This document shows, in pieces, positions 1-33,742 of a DNA stretch of 33,742 bases. Position 1 is the first letter of the stretch. Each line of letters starts with the position of its first letter. The translations under genes and the position numbers were made by a program. Where the stretch lies: positions 1 through 33,742 of IMG/VR virus record IMGVR_UViG_3300009108_000034; one strand, given 5' to 3'. The notes below the pieces were generated by a model that saw only the letters and a list, made by a program, of their open reading frames with translations, ran no database searches and was not told the origin of the DNA. The DNA comes from a virus.

Positions 1-347
1 ATTTAAAAAGGAAAAAAAAGATAACAACTGGGCAACTTTATAAATCTTTAAAATATAAAATAATACCAGATAAAAATTCTACTATTTTAAATTTTGAAAT
101 GGAAGATTATGGATTATTTGTAGACAAAGGGGTAAAAGGAAAAGACCCAAATGCTCTACCACCCAAAGCAAAATATTATGGAATACAAAAAGCACCCAAT
201 AGTCCATATCAATTTGGTGCTATGAAAAGCAGAGGATTAAGAAAGGCATTAAATAGATGGACTGTACAGAAAAATATAAAAGGAGTTAGAGATAAAAAGG
301 GTAGATTTTTACCTAGAAAGAGTATGCAATTTATGATGGCAAGAAGT
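1..347. repeat. Left copy of terminal redundancy
   Basis: Bases 1-347 align without gaps to 33396-33742. Bases 1-103 and 234-347 are identical between copies, while 104-233 carry about 38 substitutions. This is the usual sign of an assembly that ran once round a circular or concatemeric phage genome and slightly past its start. Confidence 0.93.
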
Positions 348-20742: not shown

Positions 20743-21045
20743 ATGAGTACACTTATAAATGCAAGTATTAGGGTTGATAAACTCCCAAAAGAAAAATTTA
20801 TCAAAGGAAAGGATGGAGCAGTCTATTATAATTTGACTGTATCTATTAAAGACATATCAAGATATGGAAACAATGTATCTATATTTGATTCACAAACAAA
20901 AGAAGAACGAGAAGCTAAAAAAAATAGAAATTATCTAGGTAATGGTAGAGTTCTTTGGACTGATGGAAACGTAGTCTTAGCAGAAAAAGAAGAAGAAGAA
21001 ATGGTTGAGGTTGTTGGAGAAAATGACAAGGATTTGCCATTTTAA
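20743..21045 (+). CDS. ssb: Single-stranded DNA-binding protein
   Basis: A 100-residue, short OB-fold-like protein. It opens with I-N-A-S-I-R-V-D-K-L-P, has a conserved-type turn (G-K-D-G-A-V-Y-Y-N-L-T-V-S) and a G-R-V-L-W segment. It ends in an acidic tip, D-K-D-L-P-F, the hallmark of bacterial SSB tails that recruit repair and replication partners. It lacks the usual long disordered linker. A hairpin terminator follows directly. Confidence 0.75.
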   Translation: MSTLINASIRVDKLPKEKFIKGKDGAVYYNLTVSIKDISRYGNNVSIFDSQTKEEREAKKNRNYLGNGRVLWTDGNVVLAEKEEEEMVEVVGENDKDLPF

Positions 21046-21068
21046 AATTGGTTTATTTCCAATAAATT

Positions 21069-21103
21069 AGAGGGTAATTATAAAATATTATCCTCTTTTT
21101 TTT
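21069..21103 (+). terminator. Intrinsic terminator after ssb
   Basis: A 10-bp stem AGAGGGTAAT/ATTATCCTCT (one G-T pair) with an 8-base loop, then eight T. A smaller hairpin ATTGG/CCAAT precedes it at 21047-21063. It separates ssb from the RecA-like gene. A TATATTTA element (21105-21112) five bases before the next ATG may restart transcription. Confidence 0.87.
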
Positions 21104-21116
21104 ATATATTTATTTA

Positions 21117-21953
21117 ATGCCAAAAACAAATAATGAACTAGAACTTAAAATGCAAATTATTGAAGATGAATGTTTAATCAAAACATCAGTTTCAATGGAT
21201 TATCCCCCAGTTGCATTATCATTGGGCGAAAAATTACTAAAATCATATAAAGGCGACCAGCTAGTTCCAATTCCAATAGGAACGTATGGTAATTTTAGCT
21301 TTATACAAGCACCACCCAAGACAAAGAAAACTTTTTTTATATCTTTGCTAGCAAGTGTATATTTATCCGACACAAATAATTTTGCAGGAAACATAAAAGG
21401 ACATAGGGAAGGAAGATGTTTATTACATTTTGATACAGAGCAAGGAAAATGGCACGCACAAAGGGTTTTTAAACGAACAATGGATATGGCTAATATGGAT
21501 GATAGTGAAAATGTTTGCTATTATACTTATGGTTTACGAACTTTAGGATTTAAATTAAGAATTGAATTTATTGAATATTGTTTAAGAAAAAAGGGAAACA
21601 CAGGATTTGTAGTGATAGATGGAATTGCAGACTTGGTTGGAGATGTAAATAACTTAGAGGAATCTAGTGCTTGTACTCAAAAATTAATGGAATGGAGTGC
21701 TAAGTATAATTGCCATATTCTATGCGTAATACATTCTAACTTTGGTTCAGACAAACCAACTGGGCATCTAGGGAGTTTCCTAGAAAAAAAATGTGAAACA
21801 CAAATACAACTTGAAGCGAACACAGTAAACAAAGAATGGGTAACAGTTAAATGTAAAAGAAGTAGAGGATATGCTTTTGAAACATTTAGTTTTGAGGTAA
21901 ATGAATTAGGACTACCAAATGTAGTTGGGGACTTATACGACCCCTTAACCTAA
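21117..21953 (+). CDS. RecA/RepA-like AAA ATPase with atypical Walker A
   Basis: A 278-residue protein of the RecA-like superfamily (RepA/AAA_25 type). The Walker A place is A65-P-P-K-T-K-K-T72 followed by a hydrophobic helix: both P-loop glycines are replaced, but the K71-T72 pair stays. H-F-D-T-E-Q (104-109), Walker B F-V-V-I-D-G-I-A-D (164-172) and a sensor-like C-V-I-H-S-N-F-G (203-210) are all present. Related proteins work as replicative helicase or recombination (Sak4-type) ATPases. With no other helicase in the genome, it may load on SSB-bound DNA. Confidence 0.75.
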   Translation: MPKTNNELELKMQIIEDECLIKTSVSMDYPPVALSLGEKLLKSYKGDQLVPIPIGTYGNFSFIQAPPKTKKTFFISLLASVYLSDTNNFAGNIKGHREGRCLLHFDTEQGKWHAQRVFKRTMDMANMDDSENVCYYTYGLRTLGFKLRIEFIEYCLRKKGNTGFVVIDGIADLVGDVNNLEESSACTQKLMEWSAKYNCHILCVIHSNFGSDKPTGHLGSFLEKKCETQIQLEANTVNKEWVTVKCKRSRGYAFETFSFEVNELGLPNVVGDLYDPLT

Positions 21954-21959
21954 TGAAAA

Positions 21960-22433
21960 ATGATAGAAAAACAAATGCAGTTGCTATTTAAAAAACATAG
22001 TGACTGGATTAAAATAGTAAATTCTTTTGGTTGTGAAAAACATCTTGCAGAAGATTTGGTTCAAGAAATGTACATTAAAATACAATTAAAACTTGAAAAA
22101 GGCTTAGATATTTCTTACGGAGATGAGGTAAATTATTATTATATTTTTAAAACTTTAAGAACTTTATTCCTAGATTTGATGAGAAAGGGAAAAAATATTA
22201 AAAGAGTACCGGTAGAAAATATCAAAGGAACAGATGATACTATTGATTATGAAAAGAAGTATCAAATCATTTTAGATGAACTTGAAAAATTATATTGGTA
22301 TGATAAAAAAGTATTTGAGTTGATAAATGCAGGAGAAAGTATTGCACAACTTTCAAGAAAAACAGGAATACAATATTACTCTCTTTATAATACTTATAAA
22401 AAAGTCAAAGAAAGATTAAAAAAATTATTATGA
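21960..22433 (+). CDS. Sigma-70-family-like factor
   Basis: A 157-residue protein. Residues 27-75 resemble sigma region 2, with A-E-D-L-V-Q-E-M-Y-I-K-I and Y-I-F-K-T-L-R-T-L-F-L-D-L-M-R-K. The C-terminus (110-157) has a region-4-like HTH (E-S-I-A-Q-L-S-R-K-T-G-I-Q-Y-Y-S-L-Y). This is the two-domain layout of small alternative sigma factors. It could redirect host RNA polymerase to phage middle or late promoters. It overlaps the next gene by four bases. Confidence 0.75.
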   Translation: MIEKQMQLLFKKHSDWIKIVNSFGCEKHLAEDLVQEMYIKIQLKLEKGLDISYGDEVNYYYIFKTLRTLFLDLMRKGKNIKRVPVENIKGTDDTIDYEKKYQIILDELEKLYWYDKKVFELINAGESIAQLSRKTGIQYYSLYNTYKKVKERLKKLL

Positions 22434-25929: not shown

Positions 25930-26775
25930 ATGATAGGAATAATAGGCAGGGGTTTTGTTGGTAGTGCTGTTCAATTTGGATTTTCACCAAATGTTGGTTT
26001 TGATGAAAAAATTAGAATATATGACAAAGACCCAAGCAAAAGCATACACACATTAGAAGATGTAGTTAATAAAAGCAAAATTGTTTTTATAAGTATTCCA
26101 ACTCCATCTTATATAAATGGAGAAATAAATCTTGAATTAATTGATAATTGCTTAAATGATATTAATAATGTATCAAACAATCAAGCAATATTTTTGATAC
26201 GTTCTACAGTTATTCCTGGCACAACAAGAAAATTATCAGAAAAATATCCATCATTAAAATTAGTATTTAATCCAGAATTTTTAACAGAAAGAAGTGCTAA
26301 ACTTGATTTTATAAATCAATCAAGAGTTATATTGGGTGGTAATTTATATGAAGTTAACAAAGTGGCAGATTTATATATAAGAAGATTTGGTAAAAGTTTG
26401 CCAATAATTAGAACTAATTATGAATCCGCTGAATTAATTAAATATATGACTAATACTTTTTTGGCAACAAAAATTTCTTTTTTAAATGAAATGAAAATTT
26501 TATCAGAAAAATCAGGTTCTATATGGGAAGATGTAATTGATGGATTTATTCGTGATGGTAGAATTGGCAATTCGCATTTAAATATCCCTGGACCAGATGG
26601 AAAATTAGGTTTTGGTGGAAGCTGTTTTCCAAAAGATATACAAGCAATAATACATTATGCAGATAAATTAGGAATTAATATGTCTGTTTTAAAAGGGGCT
26701 TGGGAAACAAACTTAAAAATTAGACCAGAAAGAGATTGGGAAAATTTAGAAGGTAGAGCAATAACTAAAAAATAA
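25930..26775 (+). CDS. Nucleotide-sugar 6-dehydrogenase, C-terminally short
   Basis: A 281-residue member of the UDP-glucose/GDP-mannose dehydrogenase family. It has NAD-binding G-I-I-G-R-G-F-V-G-S (3-12), R-S-T-V-I-P-G-T-T (91-99), N-P-E-F-L-T-E (114-120) and the catalytic C232 in G-F-G-G-S-C-F-P-K-D. Full enzymes have about 390-450 residues, so the C-terminal sugar-nucleotide-binding domain is missing. The family oxidises C6 of the hexose to a uronate. This is the first gene of the sugar island. Activity of a shortened form is uncertain. Confidence 0.82.
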   Translation: MIGIIGRGFVGSAVQFGFSPNVGFDEKIRIYDKDPSKSIHTLEDVVNKSKIVFISIPTPSYINGEINLELIDNCLNDINNVSNNQAIFLIRSTVIPGTTRKLSEKYPSLKLVFNPEFLTERSAKLDFINQSRVILGGNLYEVNKVADLYIRRFGKSLPIIRTNYESAELIKYMTNTFLATKISFLNEMKILSEKSGSIWEDVIDGFIRDGRIGNSHLNIPGPDGKLGFGGSCFPKDIQAIIHYADKLGINMSVLKGAWETNLKIRPERDWENLEGRAITKK

Positions 26776-26778
26776 ATT

Positions 26779-27381
26779 ATGTTACAAAAAATAAAAATAA
26801 ATAAAATAAAAACAAACCCTAAAAATCCAAGAGTGATTAAGGATTATAAGTTTCATAAATTAGTAAATAGCATTAAACAATTTCCTCAAATGCTTAAAAT
26901 AAGACCTATTATAATAGATGAAAACAATATTATATTAGGCGGAAATATGCGATACAAAGCCTGTATTGAAGCAGGGTTAAATGAAATTTATATTTATAAA
27001 GAAAACCATTTAACTGAAAAACAAAAGCAGGAATTTATAGTAAAAGATAATGTAAATTTTGGAGATTGGGATTGGGATATACTTGGCAATGAATGGAAAA
27101 CAACAGAATTGGATGAGTGGGGTTTAGATGTTTGGCAAAATACAGATGATAATATTGAGCTAATAAATAAAGGAGATGAATTTTCTGAATGGGTAGGTAT
27201 GCCTGAATTTGAAGCAAGTGAAAAAGATATAAAAATTATAATTACATTTGATACAGAAGAAGCAAGAGAAAAATATGCTAATGAAAATAATATGCAATTT
27301 TCTGTAAAAGCACAAAAGGCTTGGAGTACATCATATCCATTTAAAAAAACCCAAGATTTAAAAAATCTAAAATATGAATAA
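26779..27381 (+). CDS. ParB-like N-terminal-domain protein
   Basis: A 200-residue protein. The ParB/Srx core spans about 1-100, with P-K-N-P-R, P-I-I-I-D-E-N-N-I-I-L-G and the motif G54-G-N-M-R-Y-K-A61. G-D-W-D-W-D-I-L-G-N-E-W then fits the linker common in ParB-methylase fusions. Here no methylase domain follows. Instead the C-terminus (I-I-I-T-F-D-T-E-E-A-R-E-K-Y) is a short beta-alpha domain. It overlaps the first glycosyltransferase by eight bases. ParB-like proteins of this type use NTP and often sit beside DNA-modifying genes. Confidence 0.78.
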   Translation: MLQKIKINKIKTNPKNPRVIKDYKFHKLVNSIKQFPQMLKIRPIIIDENNIILGGNMRYKACIEAGLNEIYIYKENHLTEKQKQEFIVKDNVNFGDWDWDILGNEWKTTELDEWGLDVWQNTDDNIELINKGDEFSEWVGMPEFEASEKDIKIIITFDTEEAREKYANENNMQFSVKAQKAWSTSYPFKKTQDLKNLKYE

Positions 27382-28135
27382 ACATCCTATTTTTATCCCA
27401 TCAAAGGGAAGATATGATAATTGTTTAACTGCTGATATGATGATAAAAGATAAAATGTTTTTTTTTATTGTTGTTGAACCACAGGAATATAAATTATATA
27501 ATAATAAATACGATAAAAAATATTTATTAAAATTACCATTTAGCAATTTAAACAAAGGTGTATATCCTGCAAGAAATTGGATAAAGGAATATTCAAATAA
27601 AAATGGTTATATATATCATTGGCAATTTGATGATGATATGAAATCATTGGCATATTATACAAATGGTAAGCAACACAAAAAACCATCTTCATATATTTTA
27701 CCATTAATTGAAAATTTTGTAGACAGATATAAAAATATAGGTGTGGCTTCTATAACCTCAAGTGCTTTTGCATTTAGCAAAAAAACCCCTTATGGTTTAA
27801 ATAAAATGATTTATGGTTGTTTTTTATATAAAAGTAATATGCCATATAAATTTAGATTAAAATTAGGTAATGATACAGATATGAGTTTACAAGTTTTAGA
27901 GGGGGGTTGGTGTACAGTTGCTATGTATGCGTTTGTTTTTAATACACAACCATTGGGTACAGGAAAGGGTGGTAATGATAGTATATATGCAGATAATGGT
28001 AGAGAAATAAGGGCAAATGCACTTAAAAATAATTTTCCACATTTACCTATAAAAGTTACTACAAGATTTGGTAGACCACATCACGATTTGTCGCAAGTTT
28101 GGAAAGGGTATAAACAACAATTAATAAAAAAGTGA
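27374..28135 (+). CDS. TET-associated-type glycosyltransferase (TAGT-like), copy 1
   Basis: A 253-residue GT-A-like enzyme. It has P-I-F-I-P-S-K-G-R (5-13), V-V-E-P-Q-E-Y (33-39), Y-P-A-R-N-W-I (64-70), an acidic H-W-Q-F-D-D-D (82-88) and G-N-D-T-D-M-S-L-Q-V-L (165-175). This order matches the glycosyltransferases that were described beside TET/JBP dioxygenases in phages. In those systems they place sugars on oxidised 5-methylcytosine. No dioxygenase is found here. It overlaps the second copy by four bases (GTGA). Confidence 0.72.
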   Translation: MNKHPIFIPSKGRYDNCLTADMMIKDKMFFFIVVEPQEYKLYNNKYDKKYLLKLPFSNLNKGVYPARNWIKEYSNKNGYIYHWQFDDDMKSLAYYTNGKQHKKPSSYILPLIENFVDRYKNIGVASITSSAFAFSKKTPYGLNKMIYGCFLYKSNMPYKFRLKLGNDTDMSLQVLEGGWCTVAMYAFVFNTQPLGTGKGGNDSIYADNGREIRANALKNNFPHLPIKVTTRFGRPHHDLSQVWKGYKQQLIKK

Positions 28136-29016
28136 ATAAATATCCAGTGTATATCGTATCAAAAGGTAGATGGAAAAATCCATTAACGGCTAATTTTTTT
28201 AAAAGAGATGGCGTTGATTTTAAAATAGTTGTAGAGCCAAAAGAATATAAAAATTATTGTAAAGCAATTGGTAAAAAATATGTTTTAAAATTATCCTTTG
28301 ATAATTTAGGAGTTGGTTCATATCCAGCTAGAAATTTTTGTTGGGAACATAGTAGTAAAAATAATCACGAAAGACATTGGGTCTTTGATGATAATATACA
28401 CAAGATACGAAGAATTACACAAGGTAAAAAAATAAAGTGTAATGCAAAAAAAGCATTAAAAATAGTAGAGGAATTTACAGACAGATATGAAAATATTGCA
28501 ATATCAGGATTTAACTATTCACAAAATGTTATTCCAGGTACATCTGATAATATTCCATTTCGTTTAAATGTTCACGTATATTCAGCAATGTTAATTAAAA
28601 ACAATATGCCTTATAAGTGGAGATTAAAATATAATGAAGATGTGGATATATGTTTACAAGTATTACATAATAAATTATGTGTTGTTTTATTTAATGCCTT
28701 TACAGTAGACAAAACAAGTACAATAGCAAAAATGAAAGGTGGTAATCAAACAGAACTCTATAAAAATAATGCGTATGAAAAAAAACTTTTAAAGACAAGA
28801 AGTTTAGAAGAAGTATGGCCGCAGTATGTTGAAACAAAGATTAGATATAATAGACCACATCATCTGATTAACTGGATGCAATTTAAACATCCATTAAAAA
28901 GAAGAAAGGATATTGACTGGGAAAATATAAAAAATAAAAAACATAATTTACAATTAAAAAAGATAGGCAAAATAAAAAATAAGGAATTAAATAAATTTTA
29001 TAATACATATAAATGA
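28132..29016 (+). CDS. TET-associated-type glycosyltransferase (TAGT-like), copy 2
   Basis: A 294-residue paralogue of the upstream protein, starting at GTG in an overlap with its stop. It shares P-V-Y-I-V-S-K-G-R, V-V-E-P-K-E-Y, Y-P-A-R-N-F and the acidic motif H-W-V-F-D-D-N (82-88, DDN in place of DDD). N-E-D-V-D-I-C-L-Q-V-L takes the place of the D-T-D-M segment. M-K-G-G-N-Q-T-E-L-Y and a basic C-terminal tail are added. The two copies differ enough to suggest distinct acceptors or sugars. They probably act in sequence or as a complex. Confidence 0.75.
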   Translation: MNKYPVYIVSKGRWKNPLTANFFKRDGVDFKIVVEPKEYKNYCKAIGKKYVLKLSFDNLGVGSYPARNFCWEHSSKNNHERHWVFDDNIHKIRRITQGKKIKCNAKKALKIVEEFTDRYENIAISGFNYSQNVIPGTSDNIPFRLNVHVYSAMLIKNNMPYKWRLKYNEDVDICLQVLHNKLCVVLFNAFTVDKTSTIAKMKGGNQTELYKNNAYEKKLLKTRSLEEVWPQYVETKIRYNRPHHLINWMQFKHPLKRRKDIDWENIKNKKHNLQLKKIGKIKNKELNKFYNTYK

Positions 29017-29843
29017 AAATTTTAGTAACGGGGGGAGCAGGTTATATAGGAAGCAATTTAATTAAATTTTTAAAAGAAAAATCATATGATAATATTACTT
29101 CAATAGACAACTATTTTACAGGCACAGAAAAAAATCATATTAAAGGAGTTATATATAGGGAAGCAAACACTTGGGATTTTGAAATAGAAAAGCAAGATAT
29201 TGTTTTTCATTTTGGAGAATATTCAAGAGTTGTGCCTTCTTTTAAAGATATAAAATATGTTATGAAAAGTAATTTATTAGGCACAAGTAGAGTAATTGAA
29301 TTATGTAAATCTTGGAATGCAAAACTTATTTATTCAGCTTCAAGTTCTAAGTTTGGTGGAAACGAAAATTTATCTCCTTATTCGTGGGTTAAATCAAAAA
29401 TGGTAGAGTTAATAAAAAACTATAAAAAATGGTTTAATTTACAATATGAAATTTGTTATTTCTATAATGTGTATGGAGAAAATCATATAACGTATGGAGA
29501 TTATGCTACAGTTATAGGGATTTTTGAAAAGCAATTAATGAATAATGAACCACTTACCATAGTAGGAGATGGAGAACAGACAAGACAGTTTACACATATA
29601 AACGATATAATAATTGCATTAAATAAAATAATGTATCAAAATAAAAATAAAGAATGGTATTTGAGTAGTGATAAAAATCATAAAATAATAGATGTTGCTA
29701 AAATGTTTAGTAATAATATTAGATTTATACCTAAAAGAAAAGGAGAAAGACACGAATCAATATCATTAATTAATGACACAAAAGAAATATTAAATTGGAA
29801 AACTAAATATAAGTTAAAAGAATATATTGATGGACAAAAGTAG
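29013..29843 (+). CDS. SDR-type nucleotide-sugar epimerase/dehydratase
   Basis: A 276-residue extended SDR protein: T-G-G-A-G-Y-I-G-S (6-14) for NAD, I-Y-S-A-S-S-S-K-F-G (106-115) and Y123-S-W-V-K127 as the YxxxK pair. V-G-D-G-E-Q-T-R-Q-F and H-I-N-D-I fit sugar-nucleotide epimerases of the GalE/WcaG group. It is in ATGA overlap with the second glycosyltransferase and overlaps the small terminase. It would convert or epimerise the activated sugar made in the pathway. The exact substrate cannot be read from the sequence. Confidence 0.82.
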   Translation: MKILVTGGAGYIGSNLIKFLKEKSYDNITSIDNYFTGTEKNHIKGVIYREANTWDFEIEKQDIVFHFGEYSRVVPSFKDIKYVMKSNLLGTSRVIELCKSWNAKLIYSASSSKFGGNENLSPYSWVKSKMVELIKNYKKWFNLQYEICYFYNVYGENHITYGDYATVIGIFEKQLMNNEPLTIVGDGEQTRQFTHINDIIIALNKIMYQNKNKEWYLSSDKNHKIIDVAKMFSNNIRFIPKRKGERHESISLINDTKEILNWKTKYKLKEYIDGQK

Positions 29844-30192
29844 ACATATAAAAAAGGAATCAATTTTAAAAGCACTTGAAAAGAGTTTAGGTATTGTTAC
29901 AGTAGCTTGTAAAAATGCAAATATTCCACGAAGCACATTTTATAAGTGGTTAAATGAAGATGAGGAATTTGCAAAACAAGTACAAGATATTGAAAATATT
30001 GCTTTAGACTTTGCAGAAAGCCATTTACATAAACAAATAAGAGACCATAATAGTACAGCAGCAACAATTTTTTATCTGAAAACAAAAGGCAAACACAGAG
30101 GTTATATTGAAAGGCAAGAAATAACTGGAGCAGATGGTATGCCAAATAATTTTCAAATTGAAATAATTGACAAAACAGAAGATACAGACTAA
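29830..30192 (+). CDS. terS: Terminase small subunit
   Basis: The ATG at 29830 is used rather than a TTG three bases before. The protein has 120 residues: an N-terminal helix-turn-helix (I-L-K-A-L-E-K-S-L-G-I-V-T-V-A-C, then N-I-P-R-S-T-F-Y-K-W-L-N) and a helical oligomerisation part (S-H-L-H-K-Q-I-R-D). T-A-A-T-I-F-Y-L-K-T-K-G-K-H-R-G is typical for TerS of this type. It binds phage DNA to start packaging. It overlaps both the epimerase and the large terminase genes. Confidence 0.82.
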   Translation: MDKSRHIKKESILKALEKSLGIVTVACKNANIPRSTFYKWLNEDEEFAKQVQDIENIALDFAESHLHKQIRDHNSTAATIFYLKTKGKHRGYIERQEITGADGMPNNFQIEIIDKTEDTD

Positions 30193-31330
30193 TGTCGTTT
30201 ATAAACATTTAGTTAAAAGCGATAAAAAAATAATAGTTGAGCAGGGTGGAACTCGGTCAGGTAAAACTTATAATATACTTCTTTGGATAATCTTTGAATA
30301 TTGTACTAAACATAAAAAGAAAGTTATTACTATTTGTCGTAAAACCTTTCCTAGTTTAAGGGCAACAGTATTAAGGGATTTTTTTGATATAATTAAAAGT
30401 CAAAATATATATAGTGAATTATTTCATAATAAATCAAACTCTGAATATAATTTATATGGAAATCTAGTAGAATTTATCTCACTTGACCAACCTCAAAAAA
30501 TTAGAGGTCGTAAAAGAGACCTATTATTTGTTAATGAAGCAAACGAATTATATTTTGAGGATTGGCAACAGCTTATATTTAGAACTCAAGAAAAAATAAT
30601 AATTGATTTTAACCCATCAGATGAATATCATTGGATATATGACAAAGTAATTCCTAGAAAGGACTGTGATTTTTTTAAAACAACTTACTTAGATAATCCT
30701 TTTATTGAAGATGTTATAAAAGAGGAAATTGAAAGACTTAAAAAAACAGATGAGCAGTATTGGCAAATTTATGGTTTAGGAGAAAGGGCAGCTAGTAGAA
30801 GTACAATTTTTAATTATGTAGAAATTAATAAAATTCCAGAAGAAGCAAAACTCCTTGCTTATGGAATGGATTTTGGTTATACGAATGACCCCAGTACCCT
30901 AGTGTCTGTTTATACTCAAGACCATAATTTATATATAAAGGAACATTTATATAAAACACAAATGACAACCTTAGATATACATAAATTTTTATTAGCAGAG
31001 AATCTTGAAAAAAATCCTATTTATGCTGATAGTGCAGAACCAAGATTAATTAATGAATTAAGAGTTATGGGACATCATATATTTCCAAGTATAAAAGGAA
31101 AGGATTCTGTTAATGCAGGAATTGATTTACTTAAAAGATATAAAATTTATATACTATCTAGTTCTAATAATGCAATACAAGAATTTAGAAACTATAAATG
31201 GACTGAAGATAAATCTGGTAGGCTTACTAATATTCCTATTGACAAAGATAATCATATAATTGACCCCTGTCGTTATGCTACTTATTCTATATTAAGCAGA
31301 CCTAATTTTGGAAAATATACCATACAATAA
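30167..31330 (+). CDS. terL: Terminase large subunit, PBSX-type (Terminase_3)
   Basis: A 387-residue protein starting at TTG (no ATG near), overlapping TerS by 26 bases. ATPase: Walker A G27-G-T-R-S-G-K-T34 and Walker B L-L-F-V-N-E124. Nuclease: M-D235-F-G, Y-A-D288-S-A-E-P and D366 in I-I-D-P-C-R-Y. All these match the PBSX/SPP1-type motor that pumps DNA into the capsid and cuts it. The gene directly follows the sugar island and ends a long + operon. Confidence 0.95.
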   Translation: MTKQKIQTNVVYKHLVKSDKKIIVEQGGTRSGKTYNILLWIIFEYCTKHKKKVITICRKTFPSLRATVLRDFFDIIKSQNIYSELFHNKSNSEYNLYGNLVEFISLDQPQKIRGRKRDLLFVNEANELYFEDWQQLIFRTQEKIIIDFNPSDEYHWIYDKVIPRKDCDFFKTTYLDNPFIEDVIKEEIERLKKTDEQYWQIYGLGERAASRSTIFNYVEINKIPEEAKLLAYGMDFGYTNDPSTLVSVYTQDHNLYIKEHLYKTQMTTLDIHKFLLAENLEKNPIYADSAEPRLINELRVMGHHIFPSIKGKDSVNAGIDLLKRYKIYILSSSNNAIQEFRNYKWTEDKSGRLTNIPIDKDNHIIDPCRYATYSILSRPNFGKYTIQ

Positions 31331-33326: not shown

Positions 33327-33742
33327 TGACTTTTAAACAAATAGAAAATCAACTTAAAATATTTGCTGATGGTGTGATTGAATTGGCAAGAAAAAATTTA
33401 AAAAGGAAAAAAAAGATAACAACTGGGCAACTTTATAAATCTTTAAAATATAAAATAATACCAGATAAAAATTCTACTATTTTAAATTTTGAAATGGAGG
33501 ATTATGGTTTATTCGTTGATAAGGGTGTTAAGGGTGCAAACCCAAATGCTTTACCACAGGGAGCTAAATGGTATGGTAGGAATAGAGCACCCAATAGTCC
33601 TTATGCTTTTGGAGCAAATAAAAGTAATGGATTAAGAAAGGCATTAAATAGATGGACTGTACAGAAAAATATAAAAGGAGTTAGAGATAAAAAGGGTAGA
33701 TTTTTACCTAGAAAGAGTATGCAATTTATGATGGCAAGAAGT
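33326..33742 (+). CDS. Tail completion/neck protein, HK97 gp10-like (5' part)
   Basis: Begins on the last base of the upstream stop and runs off the window after 139 codons. The N-terminal 23 residues (F-K-Q-I-E-N-Q-L-K-I-F-A-D-G) are missing from the left-edge copy. The codons from 33396 on match the left-edge gene, apart from a 130-bp divergent block (33499-33628). There the protein changes at about 12 positions (for example P-Q-G-A-K-W-Y-G-R-N-R instead of P-P-K-A-K-Y-Y-G-I-Q-K). Both versions stay fully open. Confidence 0.7.
   Translation, partial: MTFKQIENQLKIFADGVIELARKNLKRKKKITTGQLYKSLKYKIIPDKNSTILNFEMEDYGLFVDKGVKGANPNALPQGAKWYGRNRAPNSPYAFGANKSNGLRKALNRWTVQKNIKGVRDKKGRFLPRKSMQFMMARS
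33396..33742. repeat. Right copy of terminal redundancy
   Basis: Aligns gap-free with bases 1-347. Identical at 33396-33498 and 33629-33742; the middle 33499-33628 is divergent, with roughly 38 of 130 positions changed. The implied unit length is 33,395 bp. Confidence 0.93.

What the first reader, a model, noticed from the sequence alone, without database searches (positions are those of the whole stretch)
25930..29843. Sugar-nucleotide plus twin TAGT-like glycosyltransferase island without a TET dioxygenase
Five chained genes (26775/26779 gap of 3 bases, then overlaps) encode a nucleotide-sugar dehydrogenase, a ParB-like protein, two TET-associated-type glycosyltransferases and an SDR epimerase. 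Known TAGT enzymes glycosylate oxidised 5-methylcytosine in phage DNA. The whole circle appears to be in view, yet I see no TET/JBP dioxygenase, no DNA methylase and no hydroxymethylase. The phage may therefore use a different acceptor: a base modified by the host, a base made by an unrecognised enzyme (the Nmad1-like gene at 22430 is a candidate), or a virion or cell-surface target. A phage that brings both the sugar maker and the transferase, joined to the packaging genes, would be a self-contained modification unit.
Basis: partly seen in the sequence, partly recalled or inferred. Interest (0 to 1): 0.85.

Follow-up and report, generated by a model that had tools for sequence, protein, structure and literature searches.

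The report
ParB-coupled phage DNA glycosylation module
A small marine phage carries, next to its DNA-packaging genes, a sugar-attaching enzyme that always travels with a previously unnamed partner domain and without any of the enzymes known to prepare DNA for sugar attachment, which suggests a widespread and still uncharacterised way of coating viral DNA with sugars.

Summary
The five-gene island is real. Both transferases are PF20691 (E 1e-36, 6e-41). No TET, cytosine methylase or thymidylate-synthase-type enzyme was found in the window.

A survey of about 250 related loci changes the picture. The slot between a ParB-like gene and the terminase is a swappable DNA-modification site. Relatives carry Mom, a ParB-fused methylase, a C5-methylase, a DpdA-like enzyme or a TET pair there.

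The window's second transferase (28132-29016) belongs to a separate TAGT clade (SH-aLRT 99) whose partner is the C-terminal domain (CTD) of the ParB-like protein (about residues 134-200). That domain occurs in 78/79 loci of this transferase, in 0/74 ParB loci with other cassettes, and in 78/78 evaluable loci seeded by the domain alone. It is fused to the transferase in cultured phages and has no Pfam or PHROG model.

TET, thymidylate synthase and C5-methylase are absent in all 24 clade records of at least 18 kb; TET is found in all five TET-type controls.

Best reading: ParB/CTD brings TAGT2 to phage DNA, TAGT2 adds the first sugar without a known hydroxylation step, and the other genes make or decorate the sugar. 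The acceptor base is unknown. New variant of a known kind.

The parts
25930..26775 (+). UDP-glucose-dehydrogenase-like protein, 281 aa, catalytic motif GGSCFPKD intact, C-terminal UDP-binding domain missing; optional accessory
   Evidence: Pfam PF00984 1e-24, PF03721 1e-17, no PF03720; PDB matches end before the C-terminal domain; found in only 3 of 18 clade records
26779..27381 (+). ParB-like partner protein, 200 aa: ParB/Srx-fold N-domain (about 1-120) plus TAGT2-partner C-terminal domain (CTD, about 134-200; window bases about 27178-27378)
   Evidence: ParB_N 1.2e-6; AlphaFold/Foldseek matches to CTP-bound ParB, Noc, Srx; CTD/TAGT2 association; CTD homologous to N-terminal domain of TAGTs in cultured phages
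27374..28135 (+). TAGT1, PF20691 glycosyltransferase, 253 aa; occupies a variable slot, probably second sugar or decoration
   Evidence: Pfam 1.2e-36; slot holds other GTs, FkbM methyltransferase or sulfotransferase in relatives
28132..29016 (+). TAGT2, PF20691 glycosyltransferase, 294 aa, core enzyme of the module, GT-A fold, invariant DDN motif at residues 86-88
   Evidence: Pfam 6.5e-41; clade with SH-aLRT 99; pLDDT 90 model, Foldseek; invariant columns
29013..29843 (+). extended SDR nucleotide-sugar enzyme (epimerase or decarboxylase class), 276 aa, optional accessory specific to TAGT2 modules
   Evidence: Pfam Epimerase 6e-32; nearest PDB UDP-glucose 4-epimerase and UDP-glucuronate decarboxylase; in 12/18 TAGT2 records, 0/12 others
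29827..30192 (+). terminase small subunit, downstream border of the slot
   Evidence: PHROGs terminase small subunit 1e-7
30167..31330 (+). terminase large subunit
   Evidence: PHROGs terminase large subunit 1.7e-41

Best explanation
The island is a DNA-glycosylation cassette in a terminase-adjacent slot that these phages use for interchangeable DNA-modification enzymes. Shown by sequence: the core is a pair, the CTD (here the tail of a ParB-like protein) and TAGT2. Inferred: the ParB/Srx N-domain engages DNA and the CTD docks TAGT2, bringing the transferase onto phage DNA near the time of packaging. TAGT2 attaches the first sugar to a base without a phage-encoded TET, hydroxymethylase or methylase step. 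UGD and SDR make a non-standard donor (a UDP-uronate or a UDP-pentose/epimer). TAGT1, or in relatives GT32, another GT, FkbM methylase or sulfotransferase, extends or caps the sugar. The product would shield DNA from restriction or CRISPR nucleases. The acceptor base is not identified.
For: Same ParB slot holds proven kinds of DNA-modifying enzyme: Mom 7e-53, ParB fused to N6_N4 methylase, Tet_JBP, C5 methylase 6e-47, DpdA-like; ParB-type domains are annotated as part of DNA methylases in many phage records. CTD/TAGT2: 78/79 against 0/74, 78/78 when seeded by the CTD alone. Fusions: CTD-TAGT in Vibrio, Aeromonas and Tenacibaculum phages, ParB-CTD-TAGT in L167. TAGT2 clade SH-aLRT 99 without TET. 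TET, TS, C5-MTase 0/24 with working controls. No universal companion gene other than ParB among 18 relatives. In Vibrio phage 1.124.O the CTD-TAGT gene lies among replication genes beside Dam. Literature: T6 TAGT acts on DNA (PMC13216743); DpdB and DndB are ParB-family partners of DNA modification (PMC12839542, PMC10853773, PMC6392294).
Against: No biochemistry. ParB as a DNA recruiter is inferred; its CTD is poorly modelled (pLDDT mostly under 65) and no complex was predicted. In Vibrio 1.076.O the gene sits between portal and head-morphogenesis genes, which also fits a virion target. Two clade members (L271, L244) do lie beside a TET. A very divergent oxidase could be missed by profile searches, and most IMG/VR records are of unknown completeness.
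Confidence: 0.66

Rival explanations
1. TAGT2 glycosylates a virion or packaging protein (capsid, portal, terminase), not DNA; the ParB-like partner only serves as an adaptor.
For: Adjacent to TerS/TerL in most loci; in Vibrio 1.076.O between portal and head-morphogenesis genes; GT32/capsule-type GTs and sulfotransferase in the same slot are known from cell-surface glycans.
Against: The same ParB slot otherwise carries DNA-modification enzymes; ParB fused to DNA methylases and to TAGT; the only biochemically known PF20691 member met in the papers read acts on DNA (PMC13216743); in 1.124.O the gene is among replication genes.
Confidence: 0.15
2. TAGT2 works on an oxidised or hydroxymethylated base made by an enzyme too divergent to recognise, encoded by the phage or already present in the host (a sub-variant of the best explanation, not exclusive of DNA as target).
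For: TAGT-type DNA transferases with known chemistry use a hydroxylated pyrimidine; two clade loci lie beside a TET; PTm1 has a second, weaker thymidylate-synthase-like match.
Against: 0/24 records have TET, TS family or C5-MTase; no gene other than ParB/TAGT and virion genes is shared across 18 divergent relatives; a Pfam census of 137 non-virion ORFs showed no oxidase among the 25 most frequent of 48 families; the pair occurs in (pro)phages of many phyla, so one host-made base is unlikely.
Confidence: 0.35
3. Host-takeover sugar island: UGD, SDR and the GTs remodel host surface glycans (superinfection exclusion), and the ParB neighbour is incidental.
For: UGD and SDR are common in surface polysaccharide pathways.
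Against: UGD is present in only 3/18 and SDR in 12/18 clade records while ParB-CTD and TAGT2 are constant; CTD/TAGT2 fusion and near-perfect co-occurrence.
Confidence: 0.04

Closest known systems
TET/JBP-TAGT base-modification modules (e.g. Nonlabens phage P12024L gp26-gp27)
   Same: PF20691 transferase in a small flavobacterial phage; relatives place TET+TAGT in the same ParB/terminase slot
   Different: No TET in the window or in 23 further clade records; different TAGT clade; different ParB C-terminal domain
T2/T6 beta-glucosyl-HMC-alpha-glucosyltransferase (TAGT of T-even phages)
   Same: Same Pfam family, GT-A fold
   Different: T6 enzyme extends glucosyl-hmC and depends on dCMP hydroxymethylase and alpha-GT, none of which is present here
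RB69/Mosigvirus arabinosyl-cytosine and Shewanella phage Thanatos pentose-cytosine systems
   Same: Phage makes its own unusual nucleotide sugar and transfers it to DNA
   Different: Different donor genes; those phages carry a TS-family precursor enzyme
Bacillus phage SP-15 (glucuronate-bearing hypermodified uracil)
   Same: Phage UGD in a DNA-hypermodification cluster; window UGD is 36% identical to it
   Different: SP-15 has a hydroxymethyl-dUMP synthase and a teichuronate-like cluster
DpdB/DpdA and DndB (ParB-family partners of DNA modification)
   Same: ParB-superfamily protein generally paired with a DNA-modifying enzyme; in mycobacteriophage CRB2 also near the terminase
   Different: Different enzyme chemistry; the CTD described here is specific to TAGT2
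'Solitary' TAGTs noted in 288 of 753 phage genomes (NAR 2026, gkag531)
   Same: TAGT without alpha/beta-GT, function unknown
   Different: The passages read report no partner domain or slot; here a partner, clade and context are given

Membership tests
PF20691 TAGT glycosyltransferase family | Profile match above curated cut-off | tested here: met
   127 and 141 bits against 27.5
PF20691 TAGT glycosyltransferase family | GT-A fold with acidic metal/donor motif | tested here: met
   pLDDT 90 model; Foldseek to GT-A enzymes and phage TAGTs; invariant D86-D87-N88
TET/JBP-TAGT modification system | TET/JBP dioxygenase in the genome | tested here: not met
   0/24 clade records including the window; 5/5 TET-type controls and P12024L positive
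TET/JBP-TAGT modification system | C5-cytosine methylase supplying 5mC | tested here: not met
   PF00145 0/30 records
T-even hmC glycosylation | dCMP hydroxymethylase (TS family) and alpha- or beta-GT | tested here: not met
   PF00303 0/24, T6 control rings; no PF11440/PF09198 hit in the window ORFs scanned
RB69/Mosigvirus arabinosylation | TS-family 5-hydroxy-dCMP synthase | tested here: not met
   No PF00303 match
ParB/Srx superfamily | ParB_N domain and fold | tested here: met
   29 bits against 26.3; Foldseek ParB/Noc/Srx
ParB partition proteins | ParA partner, central HTH and partition role | tested here: not met
   Only ParB_N plus CTD in 200 aa; no ParA-type hit among the ORFs scanned
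ParB-type partner of a DNA-modification enzyme (DpdB/DndB-like) | Consistent pairing with a DNA-modifying enzyme | tested here: met
ParB-type partner of a DNA-modification enzyme (DpdB/DndB-like) | NTPase activity required for modification | not testable with these tools
   Needs biochemistry
UDP-glucose dehydrogenase | Catalytic core with active-site Cys motif | tested here: met
   GGSCFPKD at 229, NPEF at 114
UDP-glucose dehydrogenase | C-terminal UDP-binding domain (PF03720) | tested here: not met
   Absent in the window protein and in the 274-aa relative
UDP-xylose synthase / UDP-glucuronate decarboxylase (for the SDR) | TSEVYG-type catalytic Glu motif | tested here: not met
   Window has SASSSKFG; a UXS-like TSEVYG motif is in relatives L263 and (TSEIYG) L310

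The most novel reading that the evidence does not exclude
TAGT2, docked by the ParB/CTD partner, glycosylates a canonical DNA base directly (for example an exocyclic amine), so that phages of many bacterial phyla carry sugar-coated DNA made without any hydroxylated-base precursor. Relatives then methylate, sulfate or extend that sugar.
Probability: 0.28. Interest if true: 0.92.

Novelty: new variant of a known kind. Interest (0 to 1): 0.68.

Why it matters
As far as I know, glycosylated phage DNA is known only where a hydroxylated base is made first. If this clade glycosylates DNA without that step, it is a new chemistry. If not, it points to an unrecognised base oxidase. The unnamed partner domain gives a marker to find such phages, explains part of the 'solitary TAGT' group, and links ParB-family proteins to a common terminase-adjacent slot where phages exchange DNA-protection chemistries. 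Cultured phages (Vibrio 1.124.O, 1.076.O) carry the fused form, so the question is directly testable.

Tried and rejected
Nmad1-like gene at 22430 as acceptor maker: below cut-off and not co-inherited. A C5-methylase or TET hidden in unassigned ORFs: none. UDP-arabinose/xylose route by sequence motif: the window SDR lacks the UXS glutamate motif, so donor identity stays open. tblastn of the 67-aa CTD against the phage collection found nothing at E 1e-3, so the test was done with the IMG/VR motif scan. A longer tree search did not finish; the quick tree is cited and long-branch rows (T6, L069, L027) are not placed reliably. AlphaFold of the ParB-like protein resolves only the N-domain. Two of 18 records seemed to lack ParB in the ORF set (G012, G023), but the corresponding loci L135 and L171 do carry it, so this comes from ORF filtering. 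One hmmscan call failed on wrong coordinates. The Iyer 2013 paper on base-modification systems was not in the library.
Full report
Observation. The window is a 33,742-base IMG/VR virus record, 29% G+C, whose last 349 bases match its first 347 at 89%, so it is close to a complete circle with two variants of one gene at the join. The five genes are as described. Pfam places them as UDP-glucose dehydrogenase-like, ParB_N, TAGT, TAGT and NAD-dependent epimerase. No TET/JBP, thymidylate-synthase-family enzyme or DNA methylase was found among the ORFs scanned or by six-frame searches of the record for three families.

The slot. Tblastn-confirmed relatives in IMG/VR were collected with TAGT2 and with the ParB protein. 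Their gene order is ParB, then a variable cassette, then TerS and TerL. The cassette holds a Mom protein (PF25680, 7e-53), a Tet_JBP protein with a TAGT-like or other GT, an ABC ATPase-GNAT fusion, or nothing more than a methylase fused to ParB (N6_N4_Mtase 5e-18); a C5 methylase (6e-47); or a DpdA-like transglycosylase (PHROG queuine tRNA-ribosyltransferase, 2e-30 and 4e-20). ParB-domain matches in GenBank phages are often annotated as adenine methylase or DNA modification methylase. This is a DNA-modification slot, which is the main reason to think DNA is the substrate here.

The partner domain. The ParB-like protein has a ParB/Srx N-domain (Foldseek to CTP-bound ParB, Noc and sulfiredoxin) and a C-terminal domain of about 67 residues, 'EWVGMPEF...W..YPF...LKYE'. 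Scored on 153 ParB loci, this CTD is present in 78 of 79 cassettes with TAGT2 and in 0 of 74 without it, including all TET (19) and Mom (13) cassettes (Fisher p about 1e-43, not corrected for shared ancestry). A scan seeded with the CTD motif alone gave 80 loci; all 78 in which the domain was re-detected have a TAGT just downstream. In about 25 of these the CTD is a free-standing ORF of about 80 residues. In cultured Vibrio 1.124.O and 1.076.O, Aeromonas phiAS5, Tenacibaculum PTm1 and Vibrio Kuja the same domain is fused to the N-terminus of the TAGT (hhalign probability 96.9% with the window-type CTD, 99.3% and 99.6% through the GTDB set). L167 has ParB-CTD-TAGT in one chain. Free-standing CTD ORFs match no Pfam or PHROG model.

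The clade. A quick maximum-likelihood tree puts 69 TAGT2 sequences and the six CTD-fused sequences of cultured phages in one group (SH-aLRT 99) apart from TET-paired TAGTs. TAGT1 of the window falls outside it. The TAGT2 model is confident (pLDDT 90) and has a GT-A fold whose best viral matches are phage TAGTs.

No base-preparing enzyme. TET, TS-family and C5-methylase profiles are absent from 24 clade records of 18-46 kb, while TET is found in five of five TET-type records and in P12024L. Among cultured clade phages, Vibrio 1.124.O and 1.076.O have neither TS-family nor TET; Kuja, henriette and phiAS5 have a single strong TS; PTm1 has a second weaker TS-like match; T6 rings for its hydroxymethylase. 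Comparing 18 clade records with 4 TET and 8 other ParB-slot records, TAGT and ParB are the only near-universal genes beyond virion and packaging genes; SDR is in 12/18 and in none of the others. A Pfam census of 137 non-virion ORFs of 11 clade records shows no recurrent oxidase in the 25 families listed of 48. In GTDB genomes the pair occurs in isolates of Chryseobacterium, Xenophilus and Acidobacteriaceae and on MAG contigs from Planctomycetes, Verrucomicrobia, FCB bacteria and a methanogen, often beside a terminase. One host-made modified base is therefore an unlikely acceptor.

Exceptions. L271 has a TET, a 374-aa protein and a P-loop kinase just upstream of CTD-TAGT2, resembling thymine hypermodification modules (by eye), and L244 has a TET with its own GT on the opposite strand. 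They show that the clade can share a phage with TET but does not need it.

Mechanism. Inferred: ParB N-domain on DNA, CTD as dock, TAGT2 adds the first sugar. The other cassette genes make or alter the sugar: UGD (3/18), SDR (12/18), UDP-xylose-synthase-like SDRs in L263 and L310 (by motif), a second GT (TAGT1, GT32 or another), FkbM methylase, sulfotransferase, class-I methylase. The window UGD keeps its catalytic core but lacks the UDP-binding domain, so its donor, or even whether it acts on a free nucleotide sugar, is open. Precedents read here: a UGD in the hypermodification cluster of SP-15, whose DNA bears glucuronate (PMC5977210); DpdB and DndB as ParB-family partners of DNA modification; T6 TAGT acting on DNA and the unexplained solitary TAGTs (PMC13216743); TS-family 5-hydroxy-dCMP synthase in the arabinosylating phages (PMC13390438).

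Limits. Profiles can miss remote oxidases. IMG/VR records vary in completeness. Scans return the best 80 loci only. Related loci are not independent. No result here shows chemistry.

Noticed in passing
window 1-347 and 33396-33742: The two ends overlap by about 349 bases at 89% identity, giving two variants of one virion gene at the join; the record is probably a complete circular map from a mixed population.
   Followed up: yes
L271:225-3982: TET, a 374-aa protein and a P-loop kinase directly upstream of a stand-alone CTD and TAGT2; looks like a thymine-hypermodification set combined with the TAGT2 pair.
   Followed up: partly
L024:2155-2781 and L171:5355-6005: A sulfotransferase (PF13469, 2e-12 for L024) sits between ParB-CTD and TAGT2; a sulfated sugar on DNA would be new.
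   Followed up: partly
L017, L123, L137, L145, L161, L317: FkbM-type methyltransferase between ParB-CTD and TAGT2, suggesting O-methylated sugars.
   Followed up: partly
L247:1541-2584: A radical SAM protein lies between ParB-CTD and TAGT2 on a contig binned as a Methanomicrobiales archaeon.
   Followed up: no
records G024-G028 and loci L045-L098 with TET: TET/ParB phages show no C5-cytosine methylase in the five records searched, so their TET may act on thymine (base-J-like) rather than on 5mC.
   Followed up: partly
L238 (Vibrio phage henriette 12B8, 20970-22270): CTD and TAGT are present but in different frames and unannotated; either two short ORFs or a frameshift.
   Followed up: no
L005:708-1532, L010:2523-3311, L013:7932-8756: Close relatives replace the window UGD by a paralogue only 45-48% identical, equally short and without the C-terminal domain, in the same place.
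   Followed up: partly
L097:1107-1991 and L060:4717-5610: DpdA-like transglycosylases in the ParB slot, matching the DpdA/DpdB pairing known elsewhere.
   Followed up: yes
L067, L039, L040, L084: A single protein fusing an ABC-type ATPase to a GNAT acyltransferase sits in the ParB slot; possibly another DNA-modification enzyme.
   Followed up: no
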